A DNA stretch of 64,000 nt, taken from Candidatus Edwardsbacteria bacterium RifOxyA12_full_54_48 (GTDB lineage Bacteria > Edwardsbacteria > AC1 > EtOH8). The first letter of the stretch is position 1. Every line of letters starts with the position of its first letter. This document shows, in pieces, positions 2,995-40,989 of this stretch. The position numbers and the translations under genes are program-made. Below the pieces are notes generated by a model that searched no databases, had not been told where the DNA came from, and worked only from the letters and a program-made list of their open reading frames with translations. The stretch spans positions 248,001 through 312,000 of the forward strand of contig MFFN01000002.1 of the NCBI GenBank assembly GCA_001777915.1, in the 5' to 3' direction.

Positions 2995-3002
2995 TTAGAA
3001 AA

Positions 3003-9000: not shown

Positions 9001-9020
9001 TATCTCAGATAATGTATAAT

Positions 9021-11216: not shown

Positions 11217-11356
11217 TTACGCAGCGAACCTTAAAGTTAAAATATTAACCACTTTCGATGAGCTTCTTAACCCAGAGCTTAGACCGTTCACGCCTGCGTG
11301 CTGAAGCTAACTTTGGCGCGCAAGCACGGGCTTTGCCTCTCTGTCAAGAAAAAGGC

Positions 11357-12589: not shown

Positions 12590-12670
12590 TTAATTTGTTG
12601 AAATTTATTTTTGTAAGTTGCAATAAAACTAACTCGTTAAGTATAAGACAGTATCCATAAAAAGTCAAAT

Positions 12671-12711
12671 AAAAAAGGCGACTTCCATATGAATGGAAAT
12701 CACCTTTTTTA
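12671..12711 (-). terminator. Rho-independent terminator of the pilin operon
   Basis: Imperfect hairpin (GGTGATTTCCAT against ATGGAAGTCGCC) followed on the minus strand by TTTTTTATTT, about 10 bases after the PilX-like stop codon. Confidence 0.8.
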
Positions 12712-12721
12712 GGAAAGCGGT

Positions 12722-14086: not shown

Positions 14087-14100
14087 GATATTCACCCCTG

Positions 14101-17100
14101 TTAATTAGTGTTGAAATATATGATCACCCGTCCATAGCCCACACCGCCATCTTCGAACCTCTCGCCCACTATGATATCGGGTTTGGTGTGAGTCGGCCGC
14201 AAGGGAGCGGCATTGACCGTGACCACCTCTCCGGTGTACTGCCCCCCGAACAGGTCGCTGTAGCTACTGGGCAGCTGGCCGGCCGAGCATTGCGCCAGGC
14301 GGGTGCCGCCCATAAATTCCTCGATCTTGACCCCGAAGGCGATATCGTTGATGTTGTCGCCGTTGAACTGGCCGGTGGCCAGGGCCAGCACCTCGCCGTA
14401 AACGTCCAGGGTCTGGTTCGGAGCGTTTGATGCCCCGAACGTGCCGTTGCCGTTGTTGAACCACAGGTCTATCCGGCCGCGATAATCGTCCTCGGCGCTT
14501 CCCAGGACCCTCAACCCGCAGACGATATCCAGCAGTCCTGAATGGCCCGACAGGTAGGCCGCCACGGAATTTATGTAGCCGTCGGTGATGTTGTAGCACC
14601 GTTGTAGTTCGAACCTTCGGTTGAATCCCTTGCGCCGAAATATGATCAACTGCCCGCTGTAGCTGGGATAGCTCCCGGTCTTGGTGCCTATTATCAGGTC
14701 CTGGTAAAATTTCGGCACGTCGTTTCCTACGCTCCCGGTGCTGTCCACCACGTCGGCCAGATAGATCGAATGGACCTCACCGATATTGACCCCGGTGCCG
14801 GCGTGGTACATCACCGTATCCCGGTCGAATATCCCGGTGGTGTCCCCGGTCCGGTTCCTCCAGATCTCAATATGCCCCAGGTTCTCATCATCCTTGGTGC
14901 CCACCACGAAATCCACCTCGTTGGAGTTGGTCAGACCGCCGGTGGCCAGCGCCAATACGGTTTCGTTAGCGCTCCCTCCAAAAGTAGAATAGTTTCTTAC
15001 CGAATACCTGAGAAGGCCCTTCAAAGTATCCTTGTTAACTCCGGATCCGCCGCCATCGTGGGTCAATCCCACCGAGATATTATAACCGCTGGTATTCTTG
15101 ACCAGCCCGCAGATGACATCATCCGTTATGCTGGGATTGTCCAGATCGCCGGTGGCCAGGGCGGTGATGTCATAGCTGAGGTTATATGATCTGTCATAAT
15201 TGGCCGGGAACAACGCGTTGGGCGTAGTATCCGGGCTGCCGAAACGGTTATACCACACCAGCAGGTTGGAGATCAGTCCGGCGCTGTTGACCGTGCCCAG
15301 CACGATGTCATTGTCGGCGTAGGCCGATTGGGGATTGGCCTTGGCCCCCGGCGGGTTCTTGTATTCCTCGCAGTTGGGGGTGGCCAGCGACAGCACTTTT
15401 TCGGTCTGCCCCAGGGCTATGGCCACGAAGCCCGGCACGTCTCCGAACATGACATACCTGGTGCTGTCCTTGGGGACGGACAGGTTGGATATTTTGTTGA
15501 AATCAGCGGAGCGCACCCAGCTGGTGGAATCGCCCATGGTCCTGGACAGGGCGCAGGTGGAGACCATGGAATCGGGGTCGATCTCCATGACAGTATAGAT
15601 CGAGTCTCCCGGCACATAGGCGAAGAACTTTCCGGTGCCGTCGGTCCGGCCGCTGGCCACAATATTGCCGCTGTTGGAATTGAAAACCGCACAGAACACG
15701 TTGGGCAATAACGCTTCGGTGGAATCCCGGAGGGTATCCTTGTCGGCATCCTTCCATACGATGATATTGATGGCCCCGGCGGCCGCCTTGGAGTCCCCGA
15801 AATTGACGCTCAGGTCGTTCTCGCCGTCCGCCGAGATGGTATCCACCACCGTGTTGGGGGTGGTGGAAAAATAGCCCACCGAATCGGTCTCGGTAATGGT
15901 AAATATGCCGCGGGGCAGGGCGAAGCTATAATCACCCAGGGCGTCGGTGGTGGTGCTCAAAGCAATGGTGGTGGAATCAGCCACCGCCGCCTTGCCGCTG
16001 GCCGAAACGATCACCCCGGTTATGCCGCGCTCCCCGACGGTGAGTCCGCCAATGGTGTCCAGGGTATCGTTATAGACCTTGCCGCCAATGGCCCCCATGG
16101 CCCCGCTGGCTATGGACACATAGCGGAAATCGACATCGGTGATGTCGCTGGTGGTGACGGTCACCCCTGAATCCTGGGGATTCTTCAGCACATAGTAGGT
16201 TCCGGAATACTGAAAAAGTTTTTCCGGCATCACCGTATAGGAGCCGGCCTCCACCGCAAAATTATAAGTCCCGTCAGAAACGGAGGTCTGCAGTGCGCCG
16301 GTGTTCAAATATACCTTGCCTCCTTGTATGAAGGTGCCGCTGCCGTCCACCACTAGTTTGCCGGTTATGCTATATTTAGCCGTGGTGTTGGGCACGTTGG
16401 CCAGGTTGGTGGTGGTGGAGACCGTCACCCGGCGGTACCGGTTGCCATCCACCGGCGACCGGGTCTCGGTGGTGACGGTGATGGTGATCAGTTCAATGCT
16501 GGAAATGATGGCGGTGCTGGGATTGGCGAACAGCCGCTCGTTACCGGTCAGCACCGTATCCCCGTTGCTGTCCCCTACCAGCTGCAGGACGCCGGAGGTA
16601 TTGCGGTACCAGTACTGGAACATGGGGATCACAGAGGTGTCGGTGGCGCTGGCCGGGCCCCGCACCAGGGCGATGTTGAAGTTGCGGGTGGGATAGACAT
16701 TATTGGTGTTGTCATCCATCTTGCCGTAAGCTTGTCGCAGAAGGACCACATCGTTGGGGTTTATCGTCTTGCGTTCAAAGACGTCGTCCGCCCGGTCGGC
16801 CGCGGCAAAGGTTCCGCTGTTGTCGGAATCGAAGGTATAGCGGTAGGTCTCCACCCCGGCGCCGTACTGAATGCCCACGCTGTAATTGGGGCAGGTGGGA
16901 TTGACATTGGGGTCGTAGGCCCGGGGCTGTTTCTGGCCCAGGCTGTCGGGCCAGGGGTTGAGGTTGCTGTTGAATATGATCTCGAAGGGCGTGGCATAGG
17001 CTATCACCGGCTGGTCGCTCTCCATGGGGATGCCGTAGCCGGAGGTCCTGATGTCCCGCACCAGCATCTCCAGGGCCGCCCCGCCCTGCTGCTGGGCCTC

Positions 17101-17229
17101 GATGATCATGTCGTTCTTGCGCTTGGCCCGGTCGCTGTTGATCATCACCATCACCACTCCGGCCATGATGATGCCCAGGATGGTGATGGCCACCATCAGC
17201 TCGGCCAGGGAGAACCCTTTTTTATTCAT
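14101..17229 (-). CDS. PilW-like minor pilin fused to Cna/SdrD-like and FG-GAP-like domains
   Basis: A 1042-residue protein. Residues 1-35 form a class III signal and pilin helix (MNKKGFSLAELMVAITILG, with G before F and a Glu at +5). The next about 250 residues match PilW. Residues about 285-560 hold carboxypeptidase-regulatory or SdrD B-like beta domains (GGKVYNDTLDTIGG; VWKDADKDTLRDS). From about residue 610 to the end are repeated VCBS/FG-GAP-like blades (ALATGDLDNPS, ALATGGLTNSNEVDFVVG, ALATGQFNGDNINDIAFG). Typical PilW is about 300 residues, so this is a pilin with a large exposed propeller, perhaps a pilus-tip adhesin. Confidence 0.85.
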   Translation of the reverse strand: MNKKGFSLAELMVAITILGIIMAGVVMVMINSDRAKRKNDMIIEAQQQGGAALEMLVRDIRTSGYGIPMESDQPVIAYATPFEIIFNSNLNPWPDSLGQKQPRAYDPNVNPTCPNYSVGIQYGAGVETYRYTFDSDNSGTFAAADRADDVFERKTINPNDVVLLRQAYGKMDDNTNNVYPTRNFNIALVRGPASATDTSVIPMFQYWYRNTSGVLQLVGDSNGDTVLTGNERLFANPSTAIISSIELITITVTTETRSPVDGNRYRRVTVSTTTNLANVPNTTAKYSITGKLVVDGSGTFIQGGKVYLNTGALQTSVSDGTYNFAVEAGSYTVMPEKLFQYSGTYYVLKNPQDSGVTVTTSDITDVDFRYVSIASGAMGAIGGKVYNDTLDTIGGLTVGERGITGVIVSASGKAAVADSTTIALSTTTDALGDYSFALPRGIFTITETDSVGYFSTTPNTVVDTISADGENDLSVNFGDSKAAAGAINIIVWKDADKDTLRDSTEALLPNVFCAVFNSNSGNIVASGRTDGTGKFFAYVPGDSIYTVMEIDPDSMVSTCALSRTMGDSTSWVRSADFNKISNLSVPKDSTRYVMFGDVPGFVAIALGQTEKVLSLATPNCEEYKNPPGAKANPQSAYADNDIVLGTVNSAGLISNLLVWYNRFGSPDTTPNALFPANYDRSYNLSYDITALATGDLDNPSITDDVICGLVKNTSGYNISVGLTHDGGGSGVNKDTLKGLLRYSVRNYSTFGGSANETVLALATGGLTNSNEVDFVVGTKDDENLGHIEIWRNRTGDTTGIFDRDTVMYHAGTGVNIGEVHSIYLADVVDSTGSVGNDVPKFYQDLIIGTKTGSYPSYSGQLIIFRRKGFNRRFELQRCYNITDGYINSVAAYLSGHSGLLDIVCGLRVLGSAEDDYRGRIDLWFNNGNGTFGASNAPNQTLDVYGEVLALATGQFNGDNINDIAFGVKIEEFMGGTRLAQCSAGQLPSSYSDLFGGQYTGEVVTVNAAPLRPTHTKPDIIVGERFEDGGVGYGRVIIYFNTN

Positions 17230-17256
17230 TATTGCACCTCTATTATAAATGTATTT

Positions 17257-17622
17257 TCAGGGTTTGTATAAGTAGACCGTGACCCCTACGCTGTCCAGGA
17301 CCCCGGGAGCGGTGTTCCAGGTGACCCCTATCCGGGCCCTTTTTACCCTCCGCATGGGAAGACTGTCGGTTATTACCCAGGTGCGGGTGAAGACCTCTAT
17401 GTTCTCGCTGTGGGTGCCGGCTGTCAGGTCGGGATCGGTTTTGGGCAGCCGCTCCATCTCCTCGGCCTTGGCCTGGGCCAAACTGGTGGCCTTGGACATC
17501 AGTCTGGCCTGGGTGGTATATCCCAGCCCCCGGGGAAACAGCTGGGCTATCCCCAGCAGGATTATGGCCAATATGGTGATGGACACCATCAGCTCGGTGA
17601 TGCTCAGTCCTTTTTGGTTCAT
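17257..17622 (-). CDS. PilV-like minor pilin
   Basis: A 121-residue prepilin with the signature MNQKGLSITELMVSITILAIILLGIAQLF, Glu at position +5 of the mature protein and the Ile/Leu-rich helix for membrane storage. A conserved segment SKATSLAQAKAEEMERLP follows, characteristic of PilV/type II pseudopilins. It is expected to be cleaved by prepilin peptidase after the Gly. Located between the fimT-like and pilW-like genes in the same operon. Confidence 0.85.
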   Translation of the reverse strand: MNQKGLSITELMVSITILAIILLGIAQLFPRGLGYTTQARLMSKATSLAQAKAEEMERLPKTDPDLTAGTHSENIEVFTRTWVITDSLPMRRVKRARIGVTWNTAPGVLDSVGVTVYLYKP

Positions 17623-17649
17623 GATCGTCGTTCCTTTATATATAGAAAA

Positions 17650-18099
17650 TTAAAAGATGCTGCCCGATTGCATGATCAGGATGGTGTCCACCGTCCCGTT
17701 GGCGATGCTCACTATCAGCGGGTTGATGGAGCTGTTGTTCACCATCCCCGAGGGGTTGAAGCCGATGGTGAAAGAGGTGCTGTTGAAGCTGACGGAAGTT
17801 GGCAGGGTGTTGGTCTTGATGATGGCCTCCCCGGAATCGTAGGCGCCGTTCCTGGGGGTGCTGGTATCGATGAAGATCCGGTACTGCCGGCTGTTGATCA
17901 CCCCCAACCCGTAATGGATGTCACGGCTCATGGCCATCTGCCGGATAAGGTTGAGATCCCCCACCAGCTGGGCCCTGGCGTCCTTGATCCTTCTGAAGGG
18001 CAGGTTGCGCACCAGGCCCGGCACAGTCAGGCCGGCCAGAATGCCGATGACCACGATAACCACCATCAGCTCGATCAGGGTAAAACCATTCCTTTTCAT
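17650..18099 (-). CDS. GspH/FimT-like pseudopilin
   Basis: A 149-residue prepilin: MKRNGFTLIELMVVIVVIGILAGLTVPGLV gives a classic class III leader and helix, followed by the RRIKDARAQLVGDLNLIRQMAMSRDIHYGL segment typical of GspH/FimT. First gene of the minor-pilin operon, with a GGAGG ribosome-binding site 7 bases before the ATG and a sigma-54 promoter just upstream. FimT-like pseudopilins initiate pilus assembly and in some species bind DNA; here that is unproven. Confidence 0.85.
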   Translation of the reverse strand: MKRNGFTLIELMVVIVVIGILAGLTVPGLVRNLPFRRIKDARAQLVGDLNLIRQMAMSRDIHYGLGVINSRQYRIFIDTSTPRNGAYDSGEAIIKTNTLPTSVSFNSTSFTIGFNPSGMVNNSSINPLIVSIANGTVDTILIMQSGSIF

Positions 18100-29861: not shown

Positions 29862-30998
29862 TTACTTCATTGCCTCCTGGCGGGAAAACTCGCGTTCCAG
29901 GGCGAATTCGGCGATGGGCGGCTCTTTTGCCCCGCTCTTTATGAAGTCGGCCGCCTTTCGCCCGATGGCCGGACCCAGCATGAAGCCATGCCCGCACATT
30001 CCGGCGATGACATAGAAGCCATCCAGGGGCGAGCGGTCCAGGATGGGGTTGCCGTCAGGGGTGTTCTCATAGCTTCCCGACCATTGGCGGATGACCTTGA
30101 CCGGGCCCAGGGCGGGAATCAGCTTGAGCATCCTTTTGGGCATCTCCGACAAAAATTCATAGCTGGAATCGGTGGAATGTCCCGGAACGTTGGGAACCGG
30201 CGAGTAGCAGCCGATGAACTGCCCGTTGTGCCGGAACTGCTGGAAATAGCCGCCATCGGCCCGGTAATCCACCAGCATGGGGATGTTCAGATATTCCACC
30301 CCTTCGGTTATCAGGGCCTCATGCCGCTCCGGCTCCACCGGCACATCTATTCCGGCCATTTGACCGATCTCCCTGGACCAGGGCCCGGCGGCGTTGATGA
30401 CGATATCGGCATGGTATTCGGTCCCCTGGGCGGTTTTGACCCCCTTGACCCGGCCTCCGCCCTGCATTATGGCGGTCACCTCGGTGAAAGTGTTTACCAG
30501 CCCGCCGCATGATCTGATCTTTTCAGCGTAGCCATTGACCACCGCAAAGGGGTAGGCCTGTCCGTCGGACGGGCAGTAGGAGCCGCCCAGCAGGCCGTCG
30601 ATGTTCAGTCCCGGGGCAACCTGCCCGGCCTGGTAGGCATCCACCCAGCGGACATCCTTCAGGCCGAAACTCTGTTGAACGGCGATATTAGCCAGAAAAG
30701 CTTCTTTCTTCTCCGGGCTGTGGGCCAGGAACAGATACCCGCCGGGATGCCAATGGACATCCATCCCCAGTTCCTCTTTCATGCTGCTGAAATGTCTTAC
30801 GCTCTCCTGCATCAGCTTGATGGACCCCTGGGAGGTGAACTGCTGGCGGATGCCGCCTATGCAGCGTCCGGTGGATCCGGCGCACAGGAAGCCCTTCTCG
30901 ATCAGCCGGACCCCATATCCTGCCCGGGCCAGGTAGTACCCGGTGGCCGCTCCGACGATACCGCCACCGATGATTATGATGTCGGCGCTCTTGGGCAT
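29862..30998 (-). CDS. FAD-dependent oxidoreductase (DAO family, sarcosine/proline dehydrogenase-like catalytic subunit)
   Basis: A 378-residue DAO-fold flavoprotein: FAD Rossmann motif ADIIIIGGGIVGAATGYYLARAGYGV, RCIGGIRQQF near residue 45, and the C-terminal GFYVIAGMCGHGFMLGPAIG. Enzymes of this family oxidise secondary or D-amino acids (sarcosine, proline, glycine). The ATG at 30998 lies 2 bases after the BFD protein stop; the frame is open upstream but without homology. Together with HcnA-, HcnB-, 4Fe-4S- and BFD-like proteins it resembles multisubunit dye-linked amino acid dehydrogenases. The substrate is unknown. Confidence 0.87.
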   Translation of the reverse strand: MPKSADIIIIGGGIVGAATGYYLARAGYGVRLIEKGFLCAGSTGRCIGGIRQQFTSQGSIKLMQESVRHFSSMKEELGMDVHWHPGGYLFLAHSPEKKEAFLANIAVQQSFGLKDVRWVDAYQAGQVAPGLNIDGLLGGSYCPSDGQAYPFAVVNGYAEKIRSCGGLVNTFTEVTAIMQGGGRVKGVKTAQGTEYHADIVINAAGPWSREIGQMAGIDVPVEPERHEALITEGVEYLNIPMLVDYRADGGYFQQFRHNGQFIGCYSPVPNVPGHSTDSSYEFLSEMPKRMLKLIPALGPVKVIRQWSGSYENTPDGNPILDRSPLDGFYVIAGMCGHGFMLGPAIGRKAADFIKSGAKEPPIAEFALEREFSRQEAMK

Positions 30999-31000: not shown

Positions 31001-31270
31001 TTATGAATCCGCCAGAATTTTCAGCGAGATGGGCTGCAGCGGCGAGCGCTGGGTAACGGCCTTTTGATCCTCCGGGGTCTGCCCCAGCTGGCGGGCCAGG
31101 ATCTGATTTACCAGCCGGCGGCAGGTCCGCCCCTGGCAATGGCCCATGCCGGCCCTGGTCAGCCGTTTGACCTCGTCGGCTGTGGTCGCGCCTTTTTCAA
31201 TCGCTTCCATGACCTGGGACTCGGTGATATCCTCGCAGCGGCAGATTATTTTGTCGTTGTTGTCCACCAT
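31001..31270 (-). CDS. BFD-like [2Fe-2S]-binding protein
   Basis: An 89-residue protein with a bacterioferritin-associated-ferredoxin domain: ICRCEDITESQVMEAIEKGATTADEVKRLTRAGMGHCQGRTC supplies the four Cys ligands in CxC-x(~30)-CxxxxC spacing. Separate BFD subunits pass electrons between DAO-type and HcnB-type subunits in proline and sarcosine dehydrogenases. It is encoded directly upstream of the DAO subunit and 54 bp after membrane cassette A. Confidence 0.88.
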   Translation of the reverse strand: MVDNNDKIICRCEDITESQVMEAIEKGATTADEVKRLTRAGMGHCQGRTCRRLVNQILARQLGQTPEDQKAVTQRSPLQPISLKILADS

Positions 31271-31324: not shown

Positions 31325-31957
31325 TTATTTTATCAAATTTATCCAATCGGTCAGCAGGAACTGCACCCTACCGATCAGCAATGATACCCGGGCCATGACG
31401 GTGTTGCCAAAACTGGCCCCGAAGCCGATCATGATGAACCAGATGCCGATGTTGGCCGATACTTTGAGGGCCCCCTTCTGCTCCCGGGAGAAGAAAAAAT
31501 AACTCAAGGTGGTCAATACCCCAATAAAAGTGATCAGTCCCCAAACCAGACTCCAGCCCCCCAGTTTAAGGTTGGTGGCATCGGCGATAGCGCTCTGCAT
31601 CTGCTTGAGGACATCGGCCTGGATGGTGGGGGCCAATGCCATTCCACTCCCGGTCCCCAGCAGCACCGCCAGGGGGATCAGGATCAGCCAGCCGGTTTTG
31701 GCGCTGAACCGGAAGAAGAACATCATTCCCAGAAGGCCGGGGATGATGAACCAGAAATTGTGCTGATGGAAAATCGGCACGTAGAGGTTGGGAACGATGG
31801 CGTTGTTCCAGTAAATGGCCACGCCGTATCCGGCCGAGATCCCCACGAAAAGGTGCTCGGCAAAACGGTAGAAGGGATTCTCCTTGTATAAAAAGGAGAA
31901 GATACACAGGGTCAGTATGGCCGCGATCCATACCCAGAGATTGTTTGAAAATGTCAT
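31325..31957 (-). CDS. Uncharacterised six-helix membrane protein, cassette A gene 4
   Basis: A 210-residue polytopic membrane protein (about six helices) of no recognised family. Its paralogue is 34734-35366; both share YK-NP-RFAEHLF-G near residue 25, GMM-FFRF, ADVLKQ-Q, YFFFSRE and the C-terminal GIWF-MIGFGA-FG-TVMARVSLLI-R-QFL-TDWI-LIK. No haem, quinone or nucleotide motif is apparent. Last gene of the first cassette; AAGGAG precedes its start. The cytosolic AEH and SRE residues are the most conserved polar positions. Confidence 0.85.
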   Translation of the reverse strand: MTFSNNLWVWIAAILTLCIFSFLYKENPFYRFAEHLFVGISAGYGVAIYWNNAIVPNLYVPIFHQHNFWFIIPGLLGMMFFFRFSAKTGWLILIPLAVLLGTGSGMALAPTIQADVLKQMQSAIADATNLKLGGWSLVWGLITFIGVLTTLSYFFFSREQKGALKVSANIGIWFIMIGFGASFGNTVMARVSLLIGRVQFLLTDWINLIK

Positions 31958-31967
31958 TTGGCTCTCC

Positions 31968-32816
31968 TTACTTCTTGCTCTGGTTGTGCCGGGTCACCAG
32001 GTAGCCGATATTGCCCAGGATGATGAACAGCATCAACAGCAGGTGGACGATGGAAACGGCGTTCATCCCCTTGGTGGCCACCGGAGCGGCGCTGGAATAG
32101 CCGTTCTTCTGGTTCAGGTATTCATACTCGCTGGCCCCCTTCATGCCGTTAAGCAGTCCCACCAGCTGGCCGGCCTGCAGGAAGGGATAGTAGTCGGCGG
32201 TGCTGACCGCGGTGCAGCCGGCGCCCACGTTGGCATGATAGCGGGTATGGGCATAGAGAATCCAGCTCTGGGTGACGGCACTGCCGGCAATGGAGACCAC
32301 CAGGGGCACATCGGCATAGTTGCGGACGCCGGCCATCATCGGCAGGCTGTCCAGCGGGGTGCCGTAGAAATCGGTGGGAAAGGCCTGGCGGAAGTTTTCT
32401 CCGATGGACATCATCACGATGGAATAGCCCGGCTTGAAGCCCAGGAAAACGTAATCCCGGCCGTTCTGGGCCCCGTACTCCGGGGCGATCTTCTGCAGGG
32501 CCGTTTCCGAAAGAGCAGCGCCGTTGGGGTCCAGGGTCAGGATGGCTATCCGGATCTTCTTGGCAAAACAGTGACGGATGACCGCCTCCAGCATGGGCTG
32601 CAGCTCGGGCATCATGGAGGGGCTGTAATCGGCCGCTATCAATATCGGCTGGTTCTGGGGAGGTATCTTATCTATGAAGTCGTACAGTTTGATGGTATAT
32701 TTCCCCGGCAGAGTGGGCAGTTTCATGGGTATCACCAGGGGAAAGATCACCGCCAGGGCCACCAGCAGGAAGATGTACCGGCGGTTTATCTTGGTCAGGT
32801 TCTCTAATATCTTCAT
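31968..32816 (-). CDS. Uncharacterised membrane-anchored extracytoplasmic protein, cassette A gene 3
   Basis: A 282-residue protein with an N-terminal anchor (residues about 14-32), a large domain of about 215 residues and a C-terminal anchor (about 256-275), so the domain lies on one side of the membrane, probably outside. Shared with paralogue 35407-36258: DY-P---EL-PM--AV-RHCFA, EY---G-DY---GF-PG, TP-DSLPMM---NY-D, AGS----SWI and YPFLQ--Q--G-L-GMKG--EYE. No enzyme family recognised; the start overlaps cassette gene 2 by 4 bp. Confidence 0.82.
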   Translation of the reverse strand: MKILENLTKINRRYIFLLVALAVIFPLVIPMKLPTLPGKYTIKLYDFIDKIPPQNQPILIAADYSPSMMPELQPMLEAVIRHCFAKKIRIAILTLDPNGAALSETALQKIAPEYGAQNGRDYVFLGFKPGYSIVMMSIGENFRQAFPTDFYGTPLDSLPMMAGVRNYADVPLVVSIAGSAVTQSWILYAHTRYHANVGAGCTAVSTADYYPFLQAGQLVGLLNGMKGASEYEYLNQKNGYSSAAPVATKGMNAVSIVHLLLMLFIILGNIGYLVTRHNQSKK

Positions 32817-33451
32817 TTGCCGCCTCCTCCCAGCCAGCTGCGCTCAATGCCCAGGATTATCTTCAGCGAGGTAGCCGTCATCCCCAGGCCGATCCCGAAA
32901 AGGATCCCCCGCTTGGCTGCCATGTTGGGGACCATCATGATCCATTCGGCGATGTCCGGTATCTTGGACCAGATCATGGAGCCGAAGGGGATCACTCCCA
33001 GCATCACTATAAAGCCTGAGATCAGCAGCAGGGCCGCCTCCTGGGAACGGGCCCGGAAGGCCCGGTAGGCGGCCGAGGCCATATAGAAAGCCAGAATGGC
33101 GAACATGGCCGAATCCATGGGGGCCTGGACATAGAGGAACAGGGTGTGGTACAGCTCGCCCAGCGACTCCAGTCCCTTTACCCTCCCGAAGATGCCCAGC
33201 AGGGCCATCACCACCAGGGCCATCAGGGTCACGATGCTGTTCCACCAATGCGGCTTGCGCCTTCTGACCTTAAGCAGGTGATGGTTGAACAGGCTGCCGA
33301 CGGCCAGCACAATGGCAAAGGCGCTGATGACCAGGGTCCACTGCAGGGTGGTCTGGTAGATGTTGGTTGATATCTGGCTGGGGATGAAGAATTGGAAGAA
33401 GAAGAATATCCCCAGGGTCAGTACGATTATCAAAGGTATCTGTCTTTTCAT
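32813..33451 (-). CDS. Uncharacterised membrane protein, cassette A gene 2
   Basis: A 212-residue membrane protein (about six helices). Its paralogue is 36260-36886. Most conserved is the block AMFAILAFYMASA-YRAFRA-S-EA-LLISGFIVMLG near residue 115, followed by P--AEW-M-VPNMAAKRGI-FGIGLG-TATSLKIILGIER-W at the C-terminus. Family and function unknown. GGAG precedes the start. Confidence 0.82.
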   Translation of the reverse strand: MKRQIPLIIVLTLGIFFFFQFFIPSQISTNIYQTTLQWTLVISAFAIVLAVGSLFNHHLLKVRRRKPHWWNSIVTLMALVVMALLGIFGRVKGLESLGELYHTLFLYVQAPMDSAMFAILAFYMASAAYRAFRARSQEAALLLISGFIVMLGVIPFGSMIWSKIPDIAEWIMMVPNMAAKRGILFGIGLGMTATSLKIILGIERSWLGGGGK

Positions 33452-33460
33452 TTTTTCTCC

Positions 33461-34645
33461 TTAACCTACCTTAAGCATTTGCAGGATGATTTCCCTGATC
33501 CCGGGGGCGACCAGCGATACGGCCAGGCCGATTATCAGCAGCAGCACAATGACGGCCTTGCTCCAATCCTGGCCCTTGAGGGTGCCCAGCAGCATCGGCT
33601 CCTTGGACAGGTAGGCCGAGGCGGCATACAACTCCTCTCCGATCAGGGTGTAATCGCAGGCGGTGATGAAGAACGGCAGCTGGTGAATGGCGTCTGTGCC
33701 GGCTATCTGGATGGCCCCGGTCTCGGCCCCGGTCTCGGCCAGGATCAGGGATTCCGCCCAGAACATGCCCATGAAAAAATTGGTGGCCGGTTTTTCCCGG
33801 GCCATGATGCCGTCCACCCCCGAGGCGAAGCCCATCTGGCTGTCGGTCAGGTAGAACACCGAATCGTGGTTATAGGCGTCGGGGCGGCCGATCTCGTTGT
33901 AGGCCTCCTTGACGATCTCCTGGGCCACGGTGAACACCACCGGATCGCGGTTGGGCACCAGCAGCGGGGTGTCGTATTCGGCGGTCTTCTTGGCCACCTG
34001 TCCCAGGATGTTCAGGGCGGCGATGGTGGCCACATCCGAGATGCTAGAAAGACCCGGAACGTAAAGAATGGGGCGGCCCATCTCGGTGGCCCGTCCCACC
34101 GCCTCCTCCACCGCCGCCAGCCCGGCGATGCGGCGGATGAACAGGCTCTGGCCGCTCTTGGCCCGGCCGATGAATATCACCACGATAAGGGTGAATAGGA
34201 TGCAGCCGATCAGAGCGTTGATGCGCATGGTGTTGAACCACTGCTCCGCAGACCTGGCCGAGACAGACACCAGGCTGTAGGCCTGGCTCTCCCGGCCCAC
34301 CGCCTTGACCTGGTAGAAATAATCCTTCCCGTTGTCCGGGACATCCTGGTCGTCAAAACTGGTGAAACCGTAGGGCACATAACCCACTTTGATAAATTCC
34401 CCCTCCGGTGTTTCCGACCGCAGGACCTCATAGCCCTCGATCATTTTTTTGACCTCGTCCGGCGACGCCTGCCAGCTAACAGTGATGGCATGTCCGGCAT
34501 CATTGGGGGTATCGGCAGCCTTGATGTCGGACGGCGGGGCAATGGCCGGCACGGTAACTGTCGGTTCGGCCGGTGCCGCTGGAGCTGCGCAAACCACAGC
34601 TGCCCAGAACATCACCAACAGCAGGCCGGTGATTTTAAGCCTCAT
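33461..34645 (-). CDS. FN3-domain membrane protein with conserved cytosolic domain (DUF6754-like), cassette A gene 1
   Basis: A 394-residue protein: signal peptide MRLKITGLLLVMFWAAVVCAAPA, one fibronectin type III-like domain (SDIKAADTPNDAGHAITVSWQAS to YFYQVKAVG, about residues 40-120), a membrane helix (about 140-160), then a conserved domain (RRIAGLAAVEEAVGRATEMGRPILY; ALNILGQVAKKTAEYDTPL; REKPATNFFMG; QIAGTDAIHQLPFFITACDYTLIGEELYAASAYLSKEP) and a final helix. I recall this domain as DUF6754-like; function unknown. Start chosen for its signal peptide and GGAGAAG site. Confidence 0.83.
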   Translation of the reverse strand: MRLKITGLLLVMFWAAVVCAAPAAPAEPTVTVPAIAPPSDIKAADTPNDAGHAITVSWQASPDEVKKMIEGYEVLRSETPEGEFIKVGYVPYGFTSFDDQDVPDNGKDYFYQVKAVGRESQAYSLVSVSARSAEQWFNTMRINALIGCILFTLIVVIFIGRAKSGQSLFIRRIAGLAAVEEAVGRATEMGRPILYVPGLSSISDVATIAALNILGQVAKKTAEYDTPLLVPNRDPVVFTVAQEIVKEAYNEIGRPDAYNHDSVFYLTDSQMGFASGVDGIMAREKPATNFFMGMFWAESLILAETGAETGAIQIAGTDAIHQLPFFITACDYTLIGEELYAASAYLSKEPMLLGTLKGQDWSKAVIVLLLIIGLAVSLVAPGIREIILQMLKVG

Positions 34646-34733
34646 CAATCTTCTCCGTTTAATAGTTTTAGCTGATTTTAAACAATTATATCCTTTATAT
34701 CCTTCGAACATTTAAAACTGCTCTTGGCCCGGC

Positions 34734-35366
34734 TTATTTTATCAGATGTATCCAATCGGTGAACAGGAACTGCATCCGGGCGATCAGCAGGGATACCCGG
34801 GCCATCACGGTATAGCCGAAGGTGGCCCCGAAGCCGATCATCACGAACCAGATGCCGACGTTGGCGGTCACCTTGATCGGTCCCTTATGCTCCCGGGAGA
34901 AGTAGAAATAGGTGATGGTGCTGATCACCCCCGCCATCACCAGCAGGCCCACCATCAGGCCCTTCTGGGGGTCCCAGATGTTGCTTAGCATGGAGGTGTT
35001 GATCATGGTGCCCTGGATCTGTTTTAAAACGTCGGCCTCAAAGGTGACCGGGATGGACATCCCGTTCCAGAAGCCCAGGCTGACCGCGATGGGTATCAGG
35101 ATCAGGTGGTTAAGTTTGGGAATGAACCTGAAAAAGTACATCATCCCGATGGCCATGGGGATCAGGGTTATCCAACGATGGTTGGCCAAGGGGGTGACGA
35201 TGTAGGGCAGGGTGTAATTGTTCCAGTACAGAACGATGAAATAGCCCACCGAAAGGCCGGTGAAAAGGTGTTCGGCGAATCTGAAGGCCGGGTTATCCTT
35301 GTAAAGATAGGAGAAAATGGCCAGGCTTAAAAGGGCCGCTATCCATATCCAGATATTTGTGCTCAT
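34734..35366 (-). CDS. Uncharacterised six-helix membrane protein, cassette B gene 4
   Basis: A 210-residue paralogue of 31325-31957, identical in length, with the same landmarks: YKDNPAFRFAEHLFTG, GMMYFFRF, ADVLKQIQG, YFSREHKGPIKVTANVGIWFVMIGFGA and MARVSLLIARMQFLFTDWIHLIK. It ends with the same Leu-Ile-Lys. About half the residues look identical by eye. AAGGATATAAAG precedes the ATG. Last gene of cassette B; 88 bp separate it from cassette A. Confidence 0.85.
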   Translation of the reverse strand: MSTNIWIWIAALLSLAIFSYLYKDNPAFRFAEHLFTGLSVGYFIVLYWNNYTLPYIVTPLANHRWITLIPMAIGMMYFFRFIPKLNHLILIPIAVSLGFWNGMSIPVTFEADVLKQIQGTMINTSMLSNIWDPQKGLMVGLLVMAGVISTITYFYFSREHKGPIKVTANVGIWFVMIGFGATFGYTVMARVSLLIARMQFLFTDWIHLIK

Positions 35367-35406
35367 CTTTATATCCTTAGTTTTGAAAGTTCTGAAAATG
35401 ACGGGG

Positions 35407-36258
35407 TTATTTTTTCTGCTCGATCTTTTTGGAGATGAAATATCCGATATTCCCCAGGATGATCAGCAGGATGATCAGCAGGTGCGAATAGGCAATGGCC
35501 CCCATGGCCTTGCTGGCTACATCCGGTTTGTGGTAATACCCCGCATCAACGATCATTTGTTCGTATTCCGCCCCGCCCTTCATGCCGCCCAGCTGTCCGA
35601 TAAACTGCTTGGTCTGCAGGAAGGGATAATTATCCGGAGCCATCACCGCGGTCTGCCCGGCCCCGATCTTAACGCCGAATTTAGTACCGGCAAAAATCAT
35701 CCAGCTTACCGGATAGGTGGAGCCGGCCAGGGACAGCACCATGGCGATGTCATCGTAGTTGTGAATGTTTTTCATCATGGGAAGGCTGTCGTAGGGTGTC
35801 TGGTAATAATCCAGCGGCAGGGCCTTTTTGACATTGACCCCCATCTGCAGCATGATGATGGTGCCCCCGGGCCTGAAACCAAAATAGCAGTAATCCTGGC
35901 CCAATTTTTTATCGTACTCCCTGGCCACCTGGGTAATGATCCCTTCGCCTATGGCGTCGCCCTGAGGAGCCAGGGACATCCCCACAACCTTTACCCCCCG
36001 GGCAAAACAATGCCGCAGCACCGCCCGGGCCATGGGATCCAGCTCGGCGGCCACCTGGGGATCGTAATCGAAGGATACCAGCAAGGAACGCCCATTGGGT
36101 TCGATTTGATCTACATAATCATAAATACCCTTGGTGGCGGAATCAACATAGAACCGGGGTTTTATGTTGAACAGCAGCGGCACCAAAATAGACAACAGCA
36201 GCAGGGCGAATACGATCCGGCGATCAAGCTTTCCGAACTTGGCTAAAAACTTAAGCAT
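35407..36258 (-). CDS. Uncharacterised membrane-anchored extracytoplasmic protein, cassette B gene 3
   Basis: A 283-residue paralogue of 31968-32816: N-terminal anchor (RRIVFALLLLSILVPLLF), extracytoplasmic domain with FDYDPQVAAELDPMARAVLRHCFARGVKV, YDSLPMM, AGSTYPVSWMIFA, GAGQTAVMAPDNYPFLQ and GMKGGAEYE, and a C-terminal helix (LLIILLIILGNIGYFI). The ATG at 36258 follows the gene 2 stop by 1 base; a longer in-frame start at 36288 would overlap gene 2 by 29 bases and is not needed. Confidence 0.82.
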   Translation of the reverse strand: MLKFLAKFGKLDRRIVFALLLLSILVPLLFNIKPRFYVDSATKGIYDYVDQIEPNGRSLLVSFDYDPQVAAELDPMARAVLRHCFARGVKVVGMSLAPQGDAIGEGIITQVAREYDKKLGQDYCYFGFRPGGTIIMLQMGVNVKKALPLDYYQTPYDSLPMMKNIHNYDDIAMVLSLAGSTYPVSWMIFAGTKFGVKIGAGQTAVMAPDNYPFLQTKQFIGQLGGMKGGAEYEQMIVDAGYYHKPDVASKAMGAIAYSHLLIILLIILGNIGYFISKKIEQKK

Positions 36259-36259
36259 A

Positions 36260-36886
36260 TCAGTGCCCCCCCATCCAGTTGCGTTCAATTCCCAGAATGA
36301 TCTTCAGGGAGGTGGCGGTGATGCCCAGCCCGATGCCGAAGGTGATGCCCCGTTTGGCGGCCATATTGGGGATCAGCATCAGCCATTCCGAAAACTTGGG
36401 CAGGCCGCTCCAGATGGCGGCCCCCTGCGGGATCAGGCCCAGCATCACGATGAAAGCCGAGATCAGCAGCATGGTGGCCTCGGTGGATTTGGCCCGGAAG
36501 GCCCGGTAGCTGGCCGAGGCCATGTAAAAGGCCAGGATGGCGAACATGGTGGCCTGCATGGGGGCCAGGGCGTAATTGAACACCTTCATGTAAAAACTGC
36601 CCTCCCGGGTGCCGCTGAACACCGCCGCCAGGATCATGAACAACGCCGCTCCCAGATAGACCAGGCTGTAGCCCCAGCCCTTGGTCTTGCGGGAGATCTT
36701 CAGGATATGGTGGCGCACCAAGCTGTCCACCGCGATCACCGAGGCGAAGACAAAAAGGATCAGATCCCATTCGATCATGGTATTGAAGGCTATCTGCGAC
36801 GGCCGGCTGGGGATGAAGAACTGGATGATGAAGGCCACTCCCAACACGAAGACTATGCCCAGGGGAATATTTTTTTTCATATTCAT
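36260..36886 (-). CDS. Uncharacterised membrane protein, cassette B gene 2
   Basis: A 208-residue paralogue of 32813-33451 with the same block AMFAILAFYMASASYRAFRAKSTEATMLLISAFIVMLG (dash-free in the middle except small changes) and the same tail NMAAKRGITFGIGLGITATSLKIILGIER. About six helices. AAAGG precedes the ATG. Encoded 6 bp after gene 1 of the cassette. Confidence 0.82.
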   Translation of the reverse strand: MNMKKNIPLGIVFVLGVAFIIQFFIPSRPSQIAFNTMIEWDLILFVFASVIAVDSLVRHHILKISRKTKGWGYSLVYLGAALFMILAAVFSGTREGSFYMKVFNYALAPMQATMFAILAFYMASASYRAFRAKSTEATMLLISAFIVMLGLIPQGAAIWSGLPKFSEWLMLIPNMAAKRGITFGIGLGITATSLKIILGIERNWMGGH

Positions 36887-36892
36887 TTACCT

Positions 36893-38029
36893 TTAGTGAA
36901 TTCTGAATAGGTTGTAGATAAGATCGGAACGAAAGATCAGGGCCGTCAGGGTGCCCAGCAGGACGAACAGGATGATCACCAGTTTGCAGGCATCCTGCCC
37001 CTTCAGGCTTCCCACCAGCAGCGGTTCCTTGGATAGGTAGGCCGAGGCGGCGTACAGCTCCTCGCCGATCAGGGTGTAATCGCAGGCGGTGATGAAGAAC
37101 GGCAGCTGGGAGATCTGGTCGGTCCCGGCTATCTGGATGGCCCCGGTGGCGGCGCCCGATTCGGCCAGCACCAGGGATTCGGCCGCATAGTAACCCATGA
37201 AGAAGTTGGTGGCCGGCTTCTCGCGGACCATTATCCCGGCCAGGGCCGCGGCGTATCCCATCTGGTCCTGGGTGATGAAGTATACCGAGTCCTCCTTGAA
37301 CAGATCCGGGCGGCCCGCGCTCTTGTAGCCCTCCTTGACCATCTCCCGGGCCACCGCATGAACCACCGGGTCGGCGGTGGGAACGGTCAGCGGGGTATCA
37401 TACTCGGCGGTCTTCTTGGCCACCTGCCCCAGGATGTTCAGGGAAGCCACGGTGGATATGGAATCTATCCATCCGATGCCGTTGCAGTAAAGTATCGGCC
37501 GCCCCATCTCGGTGGCCCGGCCTATGGCCTCCTCCACCGCATCCAGGCCGGCAATACGCCGGATGAACAGCTTGCCCTTGCGGGCCCAGTAGATATACAA
37601 AAGGGTGATGGCGATGAAAAGAAAGGTGCCGAACAGGGTGTTCAGCTTGCCGGTGTTGAACCAGCTCTGGGTGGTGGCTATCGGCCCGGCTGTAGCGCTT
37701 ACCGCACTGTCCCCGTTTTCGTTGATGGCCACCACCTTATAATAATAATCCCGACCGATGAGCTCGACGGAATTGTCCTCGTGCTCAACGGCCCCCTTGG
37801 GGACCCAGGCGATCATCCGGAAGGAATCGTTTGGCAGCATGGACCGCTCGATATTGTAGCCCATGAACCCCGGCTCATTTTCCGAGGGGGATGATTGCCA
37901 TTCCATGATGACGATGGAACCGTCATCATTGGGAGCGTCAGTCAGCTTGACATCGATCGGCGGCTCCAGCCCCAAAGCCAGAACGGGCAGCAGCAGGCAG
38001 GCCATCAGTACCATTTTCAGTTTGCCCAT
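36893..38029 (-). CDS. FN3-domain membrane protein with conserved cytosolic domain (DUF6754-like), cassette B gene 1
   Basis: A 378-residue paralogue of 33461-34645: signal peptide MGKLKMVLMACLLLPVLALG, FN3-like domain (VKLTDAPNDDGSIVIMEWQSSP to YYYKVVAIN), helix (TLFGTFLFIAITLLYIYW), then RRIAGLDAVEEAIGRATEMGRPILY, SLNILGQVAKKTAEYDTPLTVP, REKPATNFFMGYYAAESLVLAE and QIAGTDQISQLPFFITACDYTLIGEELYAASAYLSKEP, and a C-terminal helix. The cytosolic part is strikingly similar between the two copies, the FN3 parts much less so. AAAAGGG precedes the ATG. Confidence 0.83.
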   Translation of the reverse strand: MGKLKMVLMACLLLPVLALGLEPPIDVKLTDAPNDDGSIVIMEWQSSPSENEPGFMGYNIERSMLPNDSFRMIAWVPKGAVEHEDNSVELIGRDYYYKVVAINENGDSAVSATAGPIATTQSWFNTGKLNTLFGTFLFIAITLLYIYWARKGKLFIRRIAGLDAVEEAIGRATEMGRPILYCNGIGWIDSISTVASLNILGQVAKKTAEYDTPLTVPTADPVVHAVAREMVKEGYKSAGRPDLFKEDSVYFITQDQMGYAAALAGIMVREKPATNFFMGYYAAESLVLAESGAATGAIQIAGTDQISQLPFFITACDYTLIGEELYAASAYLSKEPLLVGSLKGQDACKLVIILFVLLGTLTALIFRSDLIYNLFRIH

Positions 38030-38108: not shown

Positions 38109-38501
38109 TTACAAAATTAGCCGTTTAATCCCATTTTTGATAATGGGTACGTTGACATTAATAAGGAATTCAAGGCGTTTTCCGGTCATCTTTAGATGAC
38201 TGAGCAACTGTGCTTCCCAGACGGGATTTACTTGATCAACAGCCTTCAGCTCGCAGACAACTAGATCATCCACTAGTACATCAAGCCGCAATCCTTCTTC
38301 AAATATTATTCCGTCATATTTTACCGGGATATCTATTTGCCGTTTTGATTGAAAACCCATTTTAGACAATTCATGGCAAAAGCATACTTCATAAACCTTT
38401 TCCAGCAATCCTGATCCTAATTTCCTGTGGACCTGATATGCAGCATCCACGATACCCTTCGCTATTTTCTCTTCAGATACTGAAAGAGGTTTAAACCCCA
38501 T
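38109..38501 (-). CDS. GxxExxY protein, PD-(D/E)XK nuclease-like (unit 3)
   Basis: A 130-residue GxxExxY-family protein: IAKGIVDAAYQVHRKLGSGLLEKVYE, then nuclease-like D in GLRLDVLVDD and ExK in VVCELKAVD, and hydrophobic LEFLINV near the C-terminus. The whole gene lies between inverted period-8 repeats, 4 bp from one and 6 bp from the other. It is set between the 4Fe-4S gene and membrane cassette B of the dehydrogenase operon, same orientation. Function unknown. Confidence 0.9.
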   Translation of the reverse strand: MGFKPLSVSEEKIAKGIVDAAYQVHRKLGSGLLEKVYEVCFCHELSKMGFQSKRQIDIPVKYDGIIFEEGLRLDVLVDDLVVCELKAVDQVNPVWEAQLLSHLKMTGKRLEFLINVNVPIIKNGIKRLIL

Positions 38502-38540: not shown

Positions 38541-39056
38541 TCAAGATAGCAGTTTAAAGAACCTTACATCCTTTTCCTTGCCCTTGGGGATGGTCAGGGT
38601 CACCAGCGGGGTCTTCCCCTGGGCCTTGGTATTCAACACTTTGATAACTTTGGCCTGGCAGCATTCCTTTCCTGCCCGGTCCAGGGCAGCGACCAGATCC
38701 CCCTTCTCCGGCAGGGGCAGGAACTCGTAGGGCATGGTGACGGCGCTTTCGGCATCCGAATATGCCGCGTCGATCACGAAGATGGCCAGGCCCGGGCAGC
38801 GGGAGACGCAGACGGTACAGCCGTTGCATTTGTTATGATCTGCCTGTGGCAGGGCGTTGATATTATCGCCCACCGATATGGCGTTGCGGGGGCAGCTGGT
38901 CTCGCAGGGGTTGCAGGGGATCTCCTGGAAGCATTCCAGCACCGCCACCGGGCCTTTCTTCAGCCGTTCCTCGGAAGGCCAAGCGGTCTGGATGTCCGAG
39001 GCGTCGGCCAGGCCGGTCGTTTTCAGTTTATCGGATATCATTAAAGTTTCCAGCAT
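38541..39056 (-). CDS. 4Fe-4S dicluster protein of the dehydrogenase operon
   Basis: A 171-residue protein with two [4Fe-4S] motifs, CNPCETSCPRNAI near residue 52 and CNGCTVCVSRCPGLAI near residue 77, and a C-terminal domain of about 75 residues. Similar ferredoxin-type subunits occur with HcnB-type subunits in dye-linked proline/amino acid dehydrogenases. A second Met (residue 6, MISDK) could also be the start. The 5' end has a partial duplicate at about 39809-39850, on the other side of the nucleotidyltransferase pair. Confidence 0.85.
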   Translation of the reverse strand: MLETLMISDKLKTTGLADASDIQTAWPSEERLKKGPVAVLECFQEIPCNPCETSCPRNAISVGDNINALPQADHNKCNGCTVCVSRCPGLAIFVIDAAYSDAESAVTMPYEFLPLPEKGDLVAALDRAGKECCQAKVIKVLNTKAQGKTPLVTLTIPKGKEKDVRFFKLLS

Positions 39057-39106: not shown

Positions 39107-39565
39107 TCATTTATCTTTTATAAGCGGCATCAGATTTTCAAGATCAACTTTATCTTGTAACCGGTTGGCAGCGCGTTTGGCACTGATCAAGTCCTTAAGA
39201 CCAATAAAATAGGTATTGGTTTTGCCGAATTTACTTTTCTTTCTGTTGGGCCATGCCTTTTTAAAAGTCAATCCTGCAATGTCGGTAAGAATATCAATCC
39301 GGACCGGTTCAACCCCTATCTGGAAAATTGTGCCTTTTATCGCCAGATCGTTTATACTGATTTTATTTAGCGGGGCGCCGAAATCGGACAAACATTTATA
39401 TACCTTACCTGCATTTTCAGCCGTCGGTTCTATCCATATATCCATGTCTTTGGTATACCGGGGTTGAGCATAATAGGAAACAGCAAAGGCTCCAATCAAA
39501 AGATATTTGACCTTACCGGTGTTGAAAATGCGTAATAGATCTTCGTAATCTTGGTATATCTCCAT
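39107..39565 (-). CDS. Nucleotidyltransferase-fold protein (AbiEii/DUF6036-like), AT-rich
   Basis: A 152-residue protein with a minimal nucleotidyltransferase core: YLLIGAFAVSYYAQPRYTKDMDIWIEP near residues 21-47 gives the G-(hydrophobic)-x-A and DxD metal positions, with a later Asp in PVRIDIL. It resembles small proteins of the AbiEii/MNT antitoxin-like groups. Its start overlaps the upstream small gene by 53 bp, so the two are coupled. More AT-rich than the flanking dehydrogenase genes and bounded by duplicated sequence, so probably inserted. Confidence 0.75.
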   Translation of the reverse strand: MEIYQDYEDLLRIFNTGKVKYLLIGAFAVSYYAQPRYTKDMDIWIEPTAENAGKVYKCLSDFGAPLNKISINDLAIKGTIFQIGVEPVRIDILTDIAGLTFKKAWPNRKKSKFGKTNTYFIGLKDLISAKRAANRLQDKVDLENLMPLIKDK

Positions 39566-39897: not shown

Positions 39898-40989
39898 TCA
39901 AACAGTTTTGATCCTGCACTCTTTCAGTTTGCACTTCCCTTCCCGGGCCTTCTGTCCGAACGGCCCGGCCCTCAATCCGGCCAGCCGGCAGGCGGTGTCG
40001 TCAATCCGGCATTGCAGTTCCTTTGAGTCGCCCTTCAGGTATTTTACCGCCCCCAGCCCCGCCAGTTCGCCCTCCAGCATGGCGGTGGATGCCTCTTCGA
40101 TCCCGCTGACATCGCCGGCGGTGAATATCCCCGGGACGGTGGTCATCATCAGATCGTCGTGCCAGGCCACCTGGCCCCCCAGTTCCGGAATGTAGTTCAG
40201 CTGACAGCCGGCCTGCCATAAAAGTTCGGTCAAGGGGGAAAGCCCCACCGCCAGGCAGATGGTGTCCACCTCCAGGGTCTGCTGGGTGTCCCCTAGGGTC
40301 TGCCATTTATCGTCAATTCTGGATATGACCGCCCCGCTGACCATATCCCCTCCCAAAGCATTTAGGATGGTGTGGCGGGTTAAAATGGGCACCCCCGCCC
40401 GGGCGATCTTGGAGGCGTGCACCAGATAGCCTCCGATCTTGGGCAGGCCCTCGATGATGGCCTTGACCTGCACCCCGGCCTGCATCAACTGGTAGGAAAC
40501 GATAAGCCCGATGTTGCCGGAGCCCACCATCAGCACGCTGTTACCCGGCTTGATGCCGTAGACGTTCATCAGGGTCTGCACCGCCCCGGCTCCGTAGACA
40601 CCGGGCAGGTCGCTGCCGGGAAAGGATACGAAATTCTCCGAAGCTCCGGTGGCCACCAGAACGGCCCTGGGCTTGAGCGGTGTGACCTTCTCGTTCTGCA
40701 GCACCGCCACCGTCCCGTCGGAATAATATCCCACCGCCGAGGCCTGGCGCTCTATTTGGATGCCACGCTTCCCCATCTCCTGCTCCAGCTCCAGGCCTAT
40801 CTCAAAACCCCGGGTTCCGGCCCGCTCGGCCTTGGAACCGAAGAACATGTGGGTCTGCTTGATCAGCTGGCCCCCAATGGCCTGGTTCTCGTCAACTATC
40901 AGCGGCTCCAGGCCGAACTCCGAGGCCGACAGCGCCGCCATCAGCCCGGCCGGGCCGCCCCCGATGATAAGGAAGTCTGTATTTGTCAT
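39898..40989 (-). CDS. FAD/NAD(P)-dependent oxidoreductase, HcnB-like dehydrogenase subunit
   Basis: A 363-residue flavoprotein: N-terminal FAD motif DFLIIGGGPAGLMAALSAS, NAD(P) motif VLMVGSGNIGLIVSYQLMQAG near residue 155, and GIFTAGDVSGIEEASTAMLEGELAG near 290. It resembles HcnB/proline dehydrogenase alpha subunits but lacks a fused BFD domain, which is encoded separately at 31001. Encoded 31 bp after the HcnA-like gene. The C-terminus is Cys/Lys-rich and ends next to duplicated sequence. Confidence 0.88.
   Translation of the reverse strand: MTNTDFLIIGGGPAGLMAALSASEFGLEPLIVDENQAIGGQLIKQTHMFFGSKAERAGTRGFEIGLELEQEMGKRGIQIERQASAVGYYSDGTVAVLQNEKVTPLKPRAVLVATGASENFVSFPGSDLPGVYGAGAVQTLMNVYGIKPGNSVLMVGSGNIGLIVSYQLMQAGVQVKAIIEGLPKIGGYLVHASKIARAGVPILTRHTILNALGGDMVSGAVISRIDDKWQTLGDTQQTLEVDTICLAVGLSPLTELLWQAGCQLNYIPELGGQVAWHDDLMMTTVPGIFTAGDVSGIEEASTAMLEGELAGLGAVKYLKGDSKELQCRIDDTACRLAGLRAGPFGQKAREGKCKLKECRIKTV

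What the first reader, a model, noticed from the sequence alone, without database searches (positions are those of the whole stretch)
31325..38029. Two tandem copies of an uncharacterised four-gene membrane cassette inside an amino acid dehydrogenase operon
Seen: genes at 36893, 36260, 35407 and 34734 (cassette B), then 33461, 32813, 31968 and 31325 (cassette A), have the same order and near-identical lengths, and each pair is visibly paralogous (identical blocks such as REKPATNFFMG, AFYMASA-YRAFRA, DSLPMM, RFAEHLF and MARVSLLI). Gene 1 is a signal-peptide/FN3/cytosolic-domain protein, gene 2 and gene 4 are polytopic, and gene 3 has a large anchored domain. The cassettes lie between subunits of a flavin/Fe-S dehydrogenase with one promoter upstream (41380) and no clear terminator within. 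Inference: an unknown membrane complex, perhaps an acceptor, transporter or signalling device tied to the dehydrogenase, in two non-equivalent forms. No haem, quinone or ion-binding motif was found.
Basis: partly seen in the sequence, partly recalled or inferred. Interest (0 to 1): 0.88.

Follow-up and report, generated by a model that had tools for sequence, protein, structure and literature searches.

The report
Undescribed membrane machine with shared ATPase
Two neighbouring copies of a four-part membrane machine that nobody seems to have described sit in this bacterium's genome; the same machine occurs in dozens of other bacterial families, almost always together with one shared ATP-binding partner pair, which makes its function testable.

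Summary
Genes 38029-31325 (minus strand) are two complete paralogous cassettes g1-g2-g3-g4 in a Candidatus Edwardsbacteria genome. Gene 1 is SP-FN3-TM-DUF6754-TM (PF20539, function unknown, no paper found). Genes 2-4 match no Pfam or NCBIfam family and no solved structure. The cassette is not an Edwardsbacteria oddity: the order g1-g2-g3-g4 recurs in 101 complete cassettes (70 loci) under about ten phylum labels, often 2-3 in tandem, and 78-80 of 84-89 copies of each subunit tested stay linked in 26 whole genomes.

New here: the cassette has cytosolic partners. A GlmL-like ATPase (ASKHA type, ~605 aa, called MutL* here) and a barrel-sandwich protein (N1) occur with it nearly without exception. 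Of 280 further genomes, 68 have DUF6754 and N1, 5 only DUF6754, 0 only N1. N1 is single-copy while cassettes number 1-7. In several genomes all lie in one operon, N3-MutL*-N1-g1-g2-g3-g4.

The dehydrogenase link is real and conserved, but only in Edwardsbacteria; elsewhere the cassette stands without it. Best reading: a membrane complex with diversified outer parts, served by one shared ATPase/adaptor; transport is my leading guess, unproven. No known system claims it.

The parts
36893..38029 (-). gene 1 of cassette B: signal peptide, FN3 (outside), TM, DUF6754 (inside), TM
   Evidence: PF20539 378.8 bits; FN3 by PDB sequence and fold matches; model pLDDT 93.9
36260..36886 (-). gene 2 of cassette B: 6-TM membrane protein, N-in
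   Evidence: hydropathy and positive-inside on 79 homologues; no Pfam/NCBIfam/PDB family
35407..36258 (-). gene 3 of cassette B: TM, extracytoplasmic Rossmann-like domain, TM
   Evidence: paralogue modelled at pLDDT 95.9; acidic ectodomain, N-in; start ATG 36258
34734..35366 (-). gene 4 of cassette B: about 6 TM
   Evidence: no Pfam family for 63 homologues
33461..34645 (-). gene 1 of cassette A: as gene 1 of B
   Evidence: PF20539 405.2 bits; start ATG 34645 behind GGAG
32813..33451 (-). gene 2 of cassette A: 6-TM membrane protein
31968..32816 (-). gene 3 of cassette A: TM, extracytoplasmic Rossmann-like domain, TM
   Evidence: model pLDDT 95.9, pTM 0.91; no PDB fold match at E<0.001
31325..31957 (-). 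gene 4 of cassette A: about 6 TM
39898..40989 (-). HcnA/sarcosine-oxidase-alpha-like FAD subunit upstream of the cassettes
   Evidence: Pyr_redox_2 7.3e-31; kept in relatives
38541..39056 (-). 4Fe-4S protein of the dehydrogenase
   Evidence: Fer4 5e-6; kept in relatives
31001..31270 (-). BFD-like [2Fe-2S] / sarcosine oxidase A3 protein between g4A and DAO
   Evidence: Fer2_BFD 4.4e-16, SO_alpha_A3 2.5e-13
29862..30998 (-). DAO-family FAD dehydrogenase subunit
   Evidence: DAO 1e-73

Best explanation
Each cassette encodes one membrane complex of four subunits: g1 shows a conserved domain (DUF6754) to the cytosol and an FN3 domain to the outside, g3 shows a Rossmann-like domain to the outside, and g2 and g4 form the membrane core. 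SHOWN by comparison: the four genes are one inherited unit; a GlmL-like ATPase-family protein (MutL*) and a barrel-sandwich protein (N1) occur with it nearly without exception and sit in one operon with it in several genomes; one MutL*/N1 pair faces one to seven diversified cassettes. INFERRED: MutL* and N1 dock on the cytosolic DUF6754 domain and power or gate the complex with ATP, while the variable outer parts give each cassette its own partner or substrate, so that the whole works as an ATP-driven envelope transporter with exchangeable membrane units. In Edwardsbacteria cassettes A and B would then serve the sarcosine-oxidase/HcnABC-type dehydrogenase beside them, for instance by bringing in its substrate.
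For: Unit: 101 complete cassettes in 70 loci; 80/89 g1, 78/85 g3 and 79/84 g4 linked in 26 whole genomes, several exceptions lying at contig ends. Partners: of 280 genomes outside the phylum, DUF6754 and N1 in 68, DUF6754 only 5, N1 only 0, neither 207, with 17.7 joint expected; DUF6754 and g3 71/2/2/205; DUF6754 and MutL 68/5/9/198. The weakest DUF6754 matches go with the weakest N1 and weak MutL matches (G095, G236). Operons N3-MutL*-N1-g1-g4 in L123 and L128, MutL*-N1-g1-g4 in L125 and L130, g1-g4-MutL*-N1 in L127. Sharing: 161 DUF6754 copies in 78 genomes, 43 of them with more than one, and one full-length N1 each. Inside constant, outside variable: tandem paralogues share 67% in DUF6754, 52% g2, 51% g4, 45% g3 ectodomain, 37% FN3. 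MutL* keeps the ASKHA-type motif DcGSTTTK. Positional copies t1/t2/t3 form separate clades in Zixibacteria, as expected for specialised units.
Against: No direct evidence of transport, of ATP hydrolysis or of physical contact. No fold match for g3 above noise; the g1 fold search was swamped by FN3. GlmL itself is regarded as an accessory protein of a mutase, not a transport ATPase. WOR-3 and Poribacteria genomes keep MutL* away from the cassettes. Five DUF6754 genomes lack N1 and a few lone g1 genes exist. The identity gradient would also fit a sensor or a scaffold.
Confidence: 0.35

Rival explanations
1. MutL*/N1 is not the motor but an ATP-dependent assembly or repair factor for the membrane complex, as GlmL is thought to be for glutamate mutase; the complex itself does something else, not necessarily transport.
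For: MutL* is closest to GlmL-family accessory proteins; one copy serving many complexes and lying apart from them in many genomes suits an assembly factor.
Against: Operon N3-MutL*-N1-g1-g4 in several genomes suggests stoichiometric parts; no cofactor to insert is apparent.
Confidence: 0.25
2. A trans-envelope sensor or signalling scaffold: ligand binding at FN3/g3 changes DUF6754 inside, and MutL*/N1 relays the signal.
For: Outer parts vary, inner domain is nearly constant; multiple specialised copies per genome; in L010 a DUF4388 gene lies downstream, and tblastn finds a homologue beside the L051 cassette.
Against: Two conserved 6-TM subunits are more than a sensor needs; no known signalling domain in any subunit.
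Confidence: 0.2
3. An ion-translocating or ion-regulating unit coupled to bioenergetic enzymes (V-type ATPase, membrane dehydrogenase).
For: One cassette lies downstream of NtpC, before NtpA, in every Edwardsbacteria V-ATPase locus fetched, as far as contigs reach; conserved charged or polar residues in or near the membrane parts, e.g. g4 E34 and R190, g3 H258 and N269.
Against: V-ATPase genes are absent from all other fetched cassette loci, including the WOR-3 and Latescibacterota members of the same clade; no ion-channel family hit.
Confidence: 0.1
4. Electron acceptor or membrane anchor of the HcnABC/sarcosine-oxidase-type dehydrogenase.
For: Conserved HcnA-FeS-B-A-BFD-DAO order across Edwardsbacteria; a lone g1 lies beside another DAO/SoxA-type pair in L133.
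Against: HcnA/FeS/DAO found in no fetched cassette locus outside Edwardsbacteria; no haem, Fe-S or quinone motif; MutL*/N1 would be unexplained.
Confidence: 0.08

Closest known systems
DUF6754 (Pfam PF20539)
   Same: gene 1 belongs to it beyond doubt (378.8 and 405.2 bits, cut-off 27)
   Different: a domain of unknown function; I found no description of the three partner genes or of MutL*/N1 with it
GlmL/MutL accessory ATPases of B12-dependent mutases (PF13941, NF040745, TIGR01319)
   Same: MutL* has the whole GlmL-like ASKHA region and the DxGSTTTK motif
   Different: scores below the curated GlmL cut-offs (221.7 vs 475; 165.8 vs 204.05), carries a C-terminal extension of about 120 aa, goes with a membrane cassette; no mutase gene was noticed beside it
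RnfC / NqrA N-terminal barrel-sandwich domain
   Same: N1 shows weak barrel-sandwich similarity (RnfC_N 5e-4, NQRA_N 0.014)
   Different: below Pfam cut-offs; no hit to the FMN, SLBB or Fe-S parts of RnfC
Type IV pilus PilM-PilN/O/P inner-membrane platform
   Same: works-like only: actin-fold cytosolic ATPase with an inner-membrane complex reaching outward
   Different: no pilus genes noticed beside the cassettes; PilM match is E 0.086; the likeness is from general knowledge
ECF and other importers with one shared ATPase for many membrane units
   Same: works-like only: one cytosolic energising pair, several membrane modules
   Different: no ABC ATPase among the system's proteins; no sequence relation found

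Membership tests
DUF6754 (PF20539) | full-length domain above curated cut-off | tested here: met
   378.8 and 405.2 bits vs 27, positions 2-249 and 2-248 of 257
ABC transporter | ABC-type ATPase and ABC permease subunits | tested here: not met
   no above-cut-off ABC hit in g1-g4 or MutL*/N1/N3
GlmL equivalog | score above NCBIfam cut-off | tested here: not met
   MutL* 221.7 vs 475 and 165.8 vs 204.05 bits
PF13941 MutL superfamily | full-length ASKHA domain above cut-off | tested here: met
   414-426 bits over positions 1-450
Rnf / Nqr redox pump | RnfC/NqrA subunit with its FMN/Fe-S parts and RnfABDEG/NqrB-F partners | tested here: not met
   N1 has only a sub-threshold barrel-sandwich match; no Rnf/Nqr family hit in g1-g4
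HcnABC / heteromeric sarcosine oxidase (for the flanking genes) | Pyr_redox, Fe-S, BFD/SO_alpha_A3 and DAO subunits in one locus | tested here: met
   conserved order
HcnABC / heteromeric sarcosine oxidase (cassettes as subunits) | cassette accompanies the dehydrogenase across lineages | tested here: not met
   no HcnA/DAO in other fetched cassette loci
Known anti-phage defence system | match to a PADLOC model | tested here: not met
   no hit for seven proteins at E 0.01
Secretion or transport system of solved structure | sequence or fold match in the PDB | tested here: inconclusive
   no sequence match for g2 or g4, only insignificant ones for g3, FN3 only for g1; g3 fold without hit at E<0.001; g2 and g4 not modelled
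ATP-driven transporter | substrate flux dependent on ATP hydrolysis by MutL* | not testable with these tools
   needs biochemistry

The most novel reading that the evidence does not exclude
A hitherto undescribed, widespread bacterial envelope machine: four membrane subunits per module plus one shared ASKHA-type ATPase/barrel-sandwich pair, an energy-coupling design with no ABC, P-type, rotary or SecA ATPase.
Probability: 0.4. Interest if true: 0.93.

Novelty: categorically new. Interest (0 to 1): 0.8.

Why it matters
About a quarter of the 280 sampled genomes outside the phylum carry this gene set, yet no paper in the library names its one catalogued domain. If MutL* energises the complex, ASKHA ATPases gain a role as motors of a membrane machine. 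At the least, several gene families of unknown function fall into one testable system, with a defined operon and a strict co-occurrence to start from.

Tried and rejected
DUF6754-SppA (S49) fusion in L126: rejected, the two parts are joined across a run of unknown bases in the assembly. Homology of the g1 and g3 Rossmann-like domains: the order of helices and strands is alike, but the sequence-profile test gave z = 0.2 and hhalign 2%, so it is not claimed. g2-g4 homology: not supported. Neighbour families F6 and F7 of my first clustering appeared to be antisense ORFs and vanished after recalling genes with the cassette ORFs fixed. Plasmid spread: no match for g1. Defence system: no match. Outer-membrane dependence: Omp85 is in 272 of 290 sampled genomes, so the test is uninformative, though G095 and G236 have DUF6754 without a detected Omp85. 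Papers naming DUF6754, PF20539 or PF13941: none in the library.
Full report
WHAT IS THERE. The window comes from a Candidatus Edwardsbacteria genome (nearest named contigs 94-95% identical over g1). Eight minus-strand genes form two cassettes, B (36893-38029, 36260-36886, 35407-36258, 34734-35366) and A (33461-34645, 32813-33451, 31968-32816, 31325-31957). Gene 1 is PF20539/DUF6754 in both. Genes 2-4 have no significant Pfam or NCBIfam match alone, no consistent Pfam match over 63-79 homologues, and no PDB relative by sequence; g1 matches only FN3 domains.

STRUCTURE AND TOPOLOGY. AlphaFold models are confident for g1 (pLDDT 93.9) and g3 (95.9, pTM 0.91). g1 is signal peptide, FN3, TM, alpha/beta domain, TM; g3 is TM, alpha/beta domain, TM. 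Charge bias over the alignments puts FN3 and the g3 domain outside and DUF6754 inside; g2 reads as six TM with N and C inside, g4 as about six TM with unclear orientation. Foldseek gives no hit at E<0.001 for g3; the listed hits for g1 are nearly all FN3.

ONE UNIT IN MANY PHYLA. A scan of 84,980 species genomes found at least 523 relatives; the best 80 carry labels of WOR-3/Stahlbacteria, Zixibacteria, Latescibacterota, Poribacteria, Eisenbacteria, Fermentibacteria, Coatesbacteria, Nitrospirae, Methylomirabilis and others. The order g1-g2-g3-g4 is nearly invariant, with tandems of two or three, 101 complete cassettes in all. In 26 whole genomes 80 of 89 g1, 78 of 85 g3 and 79 of 84 g4 lie together. 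In Zixibacteria the first, second and third tandem copies form their own clades: old, kept, non-equivalent. In Edwardsbacteria the A and B clades each span genera, but the tree does not show them to be sisters.

CYTOSOLIC PARTNERS. Clustering of neighbours picked out a ~605-aa MutL/GlmL-type protein (MutL*), a ~375-aa barrel-sandwich protein (N1) and a small protein (N3) beside cassettes under several phylum labels. MutL* scores below the GlmL cut-offs. Over 280 genomes outside the phylum: DUF6754 and N1 68 both, 5 only DUF6754, 0 only N1, 207 neither (Fisher 1e-59; 17.7 joint expected); DUF6754 and g3 71/2/2/205; DUF6754 and MutL 68/5/9/198. Genomes are not independent, so the Fisher value is only a yardstick, but by my count from the tables the 68 lie in 52 families. 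The sample is the tool's choice of relatives and leans to diderms (Omp85 in 272 of 290), so 26% is not a figure for all bacteria. Of the 9 genomes with only MutL, most hold shorter (about 455-503 aa frames) proteins that look like ordinary GlmL types; G122 and G308 hold the ~610-aa type without a detected DUF6754. The co-occurrence does not rest on linkage alone: N1 lies within 8 kb of a listed DUF6754 in 34 of 76 genomes checked (a lower bound, since the match tables were cut). Where linked, the operon can be N3-MutL*-N1-g1-g2-g3-g4 (L123, L128; partly L125, L127, L130). N1 is single while DUF6754 counts 161 in 78 genomes.

LOCAL CONTEXT. In Edwardsbacteria, HcnA-FeS-B-A-BFD-DAO is kept as far as contigs reach, with an extra cassette in G004 (= L043), and one more cassette sits downstream of NtpC, before NtpA, in the V-ATPase operon of the window genome and of all six other genomes fetched for it, as far as contigs reach (V-ATPase families). 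Neither link appears in the other fetched cassette loci. Glycine decarboxylase genes lie near the MutL*-type locus in L010, L055, L058, L060, L070 and L101. A lone g1 lies beside a DAO/SoxA-type pair in L133. These links suggest, but do not prove, amino-acid substrates.

HOW IT PROBABLY WORKS. The cytosolic DUF6754 face is nearly constant (67% between tandem paralogues) while the outer FN3 and g3 parts vary (37%, 45%). One ATP-binding pair serves several such modules. The simplest model is a shared ATPase/adaptor that drives or gates exchangeable membrane modules, most likely for transport. Shown: unit, partners, sharing, identity gradient. Inferred: contact, ATP coupling, transport, amino-acid substrate. 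An assembly-factor role for MutL*/N1 is the strongest rival.

NOVELTY. DUF6754 is catalogued without function; no paper in the library names it or PF13941. The library is open-access only, so a description elsewhere cannot be excluded. The whole system matches no described kind that I could test, so I rate it categorically new as a system, with its biochemical role open.

Noticed in passing
L009:6680-10182 inside 2882-18036: A complete cassette lies inside the V-type ATPase operon (I, E, C, cassette, 100-aa and 204-aa ORFs, A, DHH, B, D); same order in L144-L149 as far as those contigs reach.
   Followed up: partly
L134:3476-6238; L075:17798-20560: MutL and N1 parts fused in one ~920-aa protein; similar 960-1030-aa proteins with both matches occur in several other genomes.
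   Followed up: no
L121-L125: Gene 1 variants of 909-1012 aa with long N-terminal extensions that align in part to the FN3 region.
   Followed up: partly
L133:6125-7246; L134:8295-9446; L132:9580-10824; L118:16947-18110: g1 genes without detected g2-g4 downstream; the one in L133 lies beside a DAO/SoxA-type dehydrogenase, the one in L132 follows MutL*-N1 and ends at the contig edge.
   Followed up: partly
window 38109-38501 and 39107-39565: PDDEXK_3/GxxExxY and nucleotidyltransferase ORFs lie in the dehydrogenase-cassette operon; both are missing in relative L041, only the first in L042.
   Followed up: partly
L126:3321-5708: Apparent DUF6754-SppA fusion is an assembly gap (run of X), not a protein.
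   Followed up: yes
G128, G266: Weak g3 matches (E 2e-25, 4e-22) in a family without detectable DUF6754: possible distant relatives of gene 3 outside the cassette.
   Followed up: no
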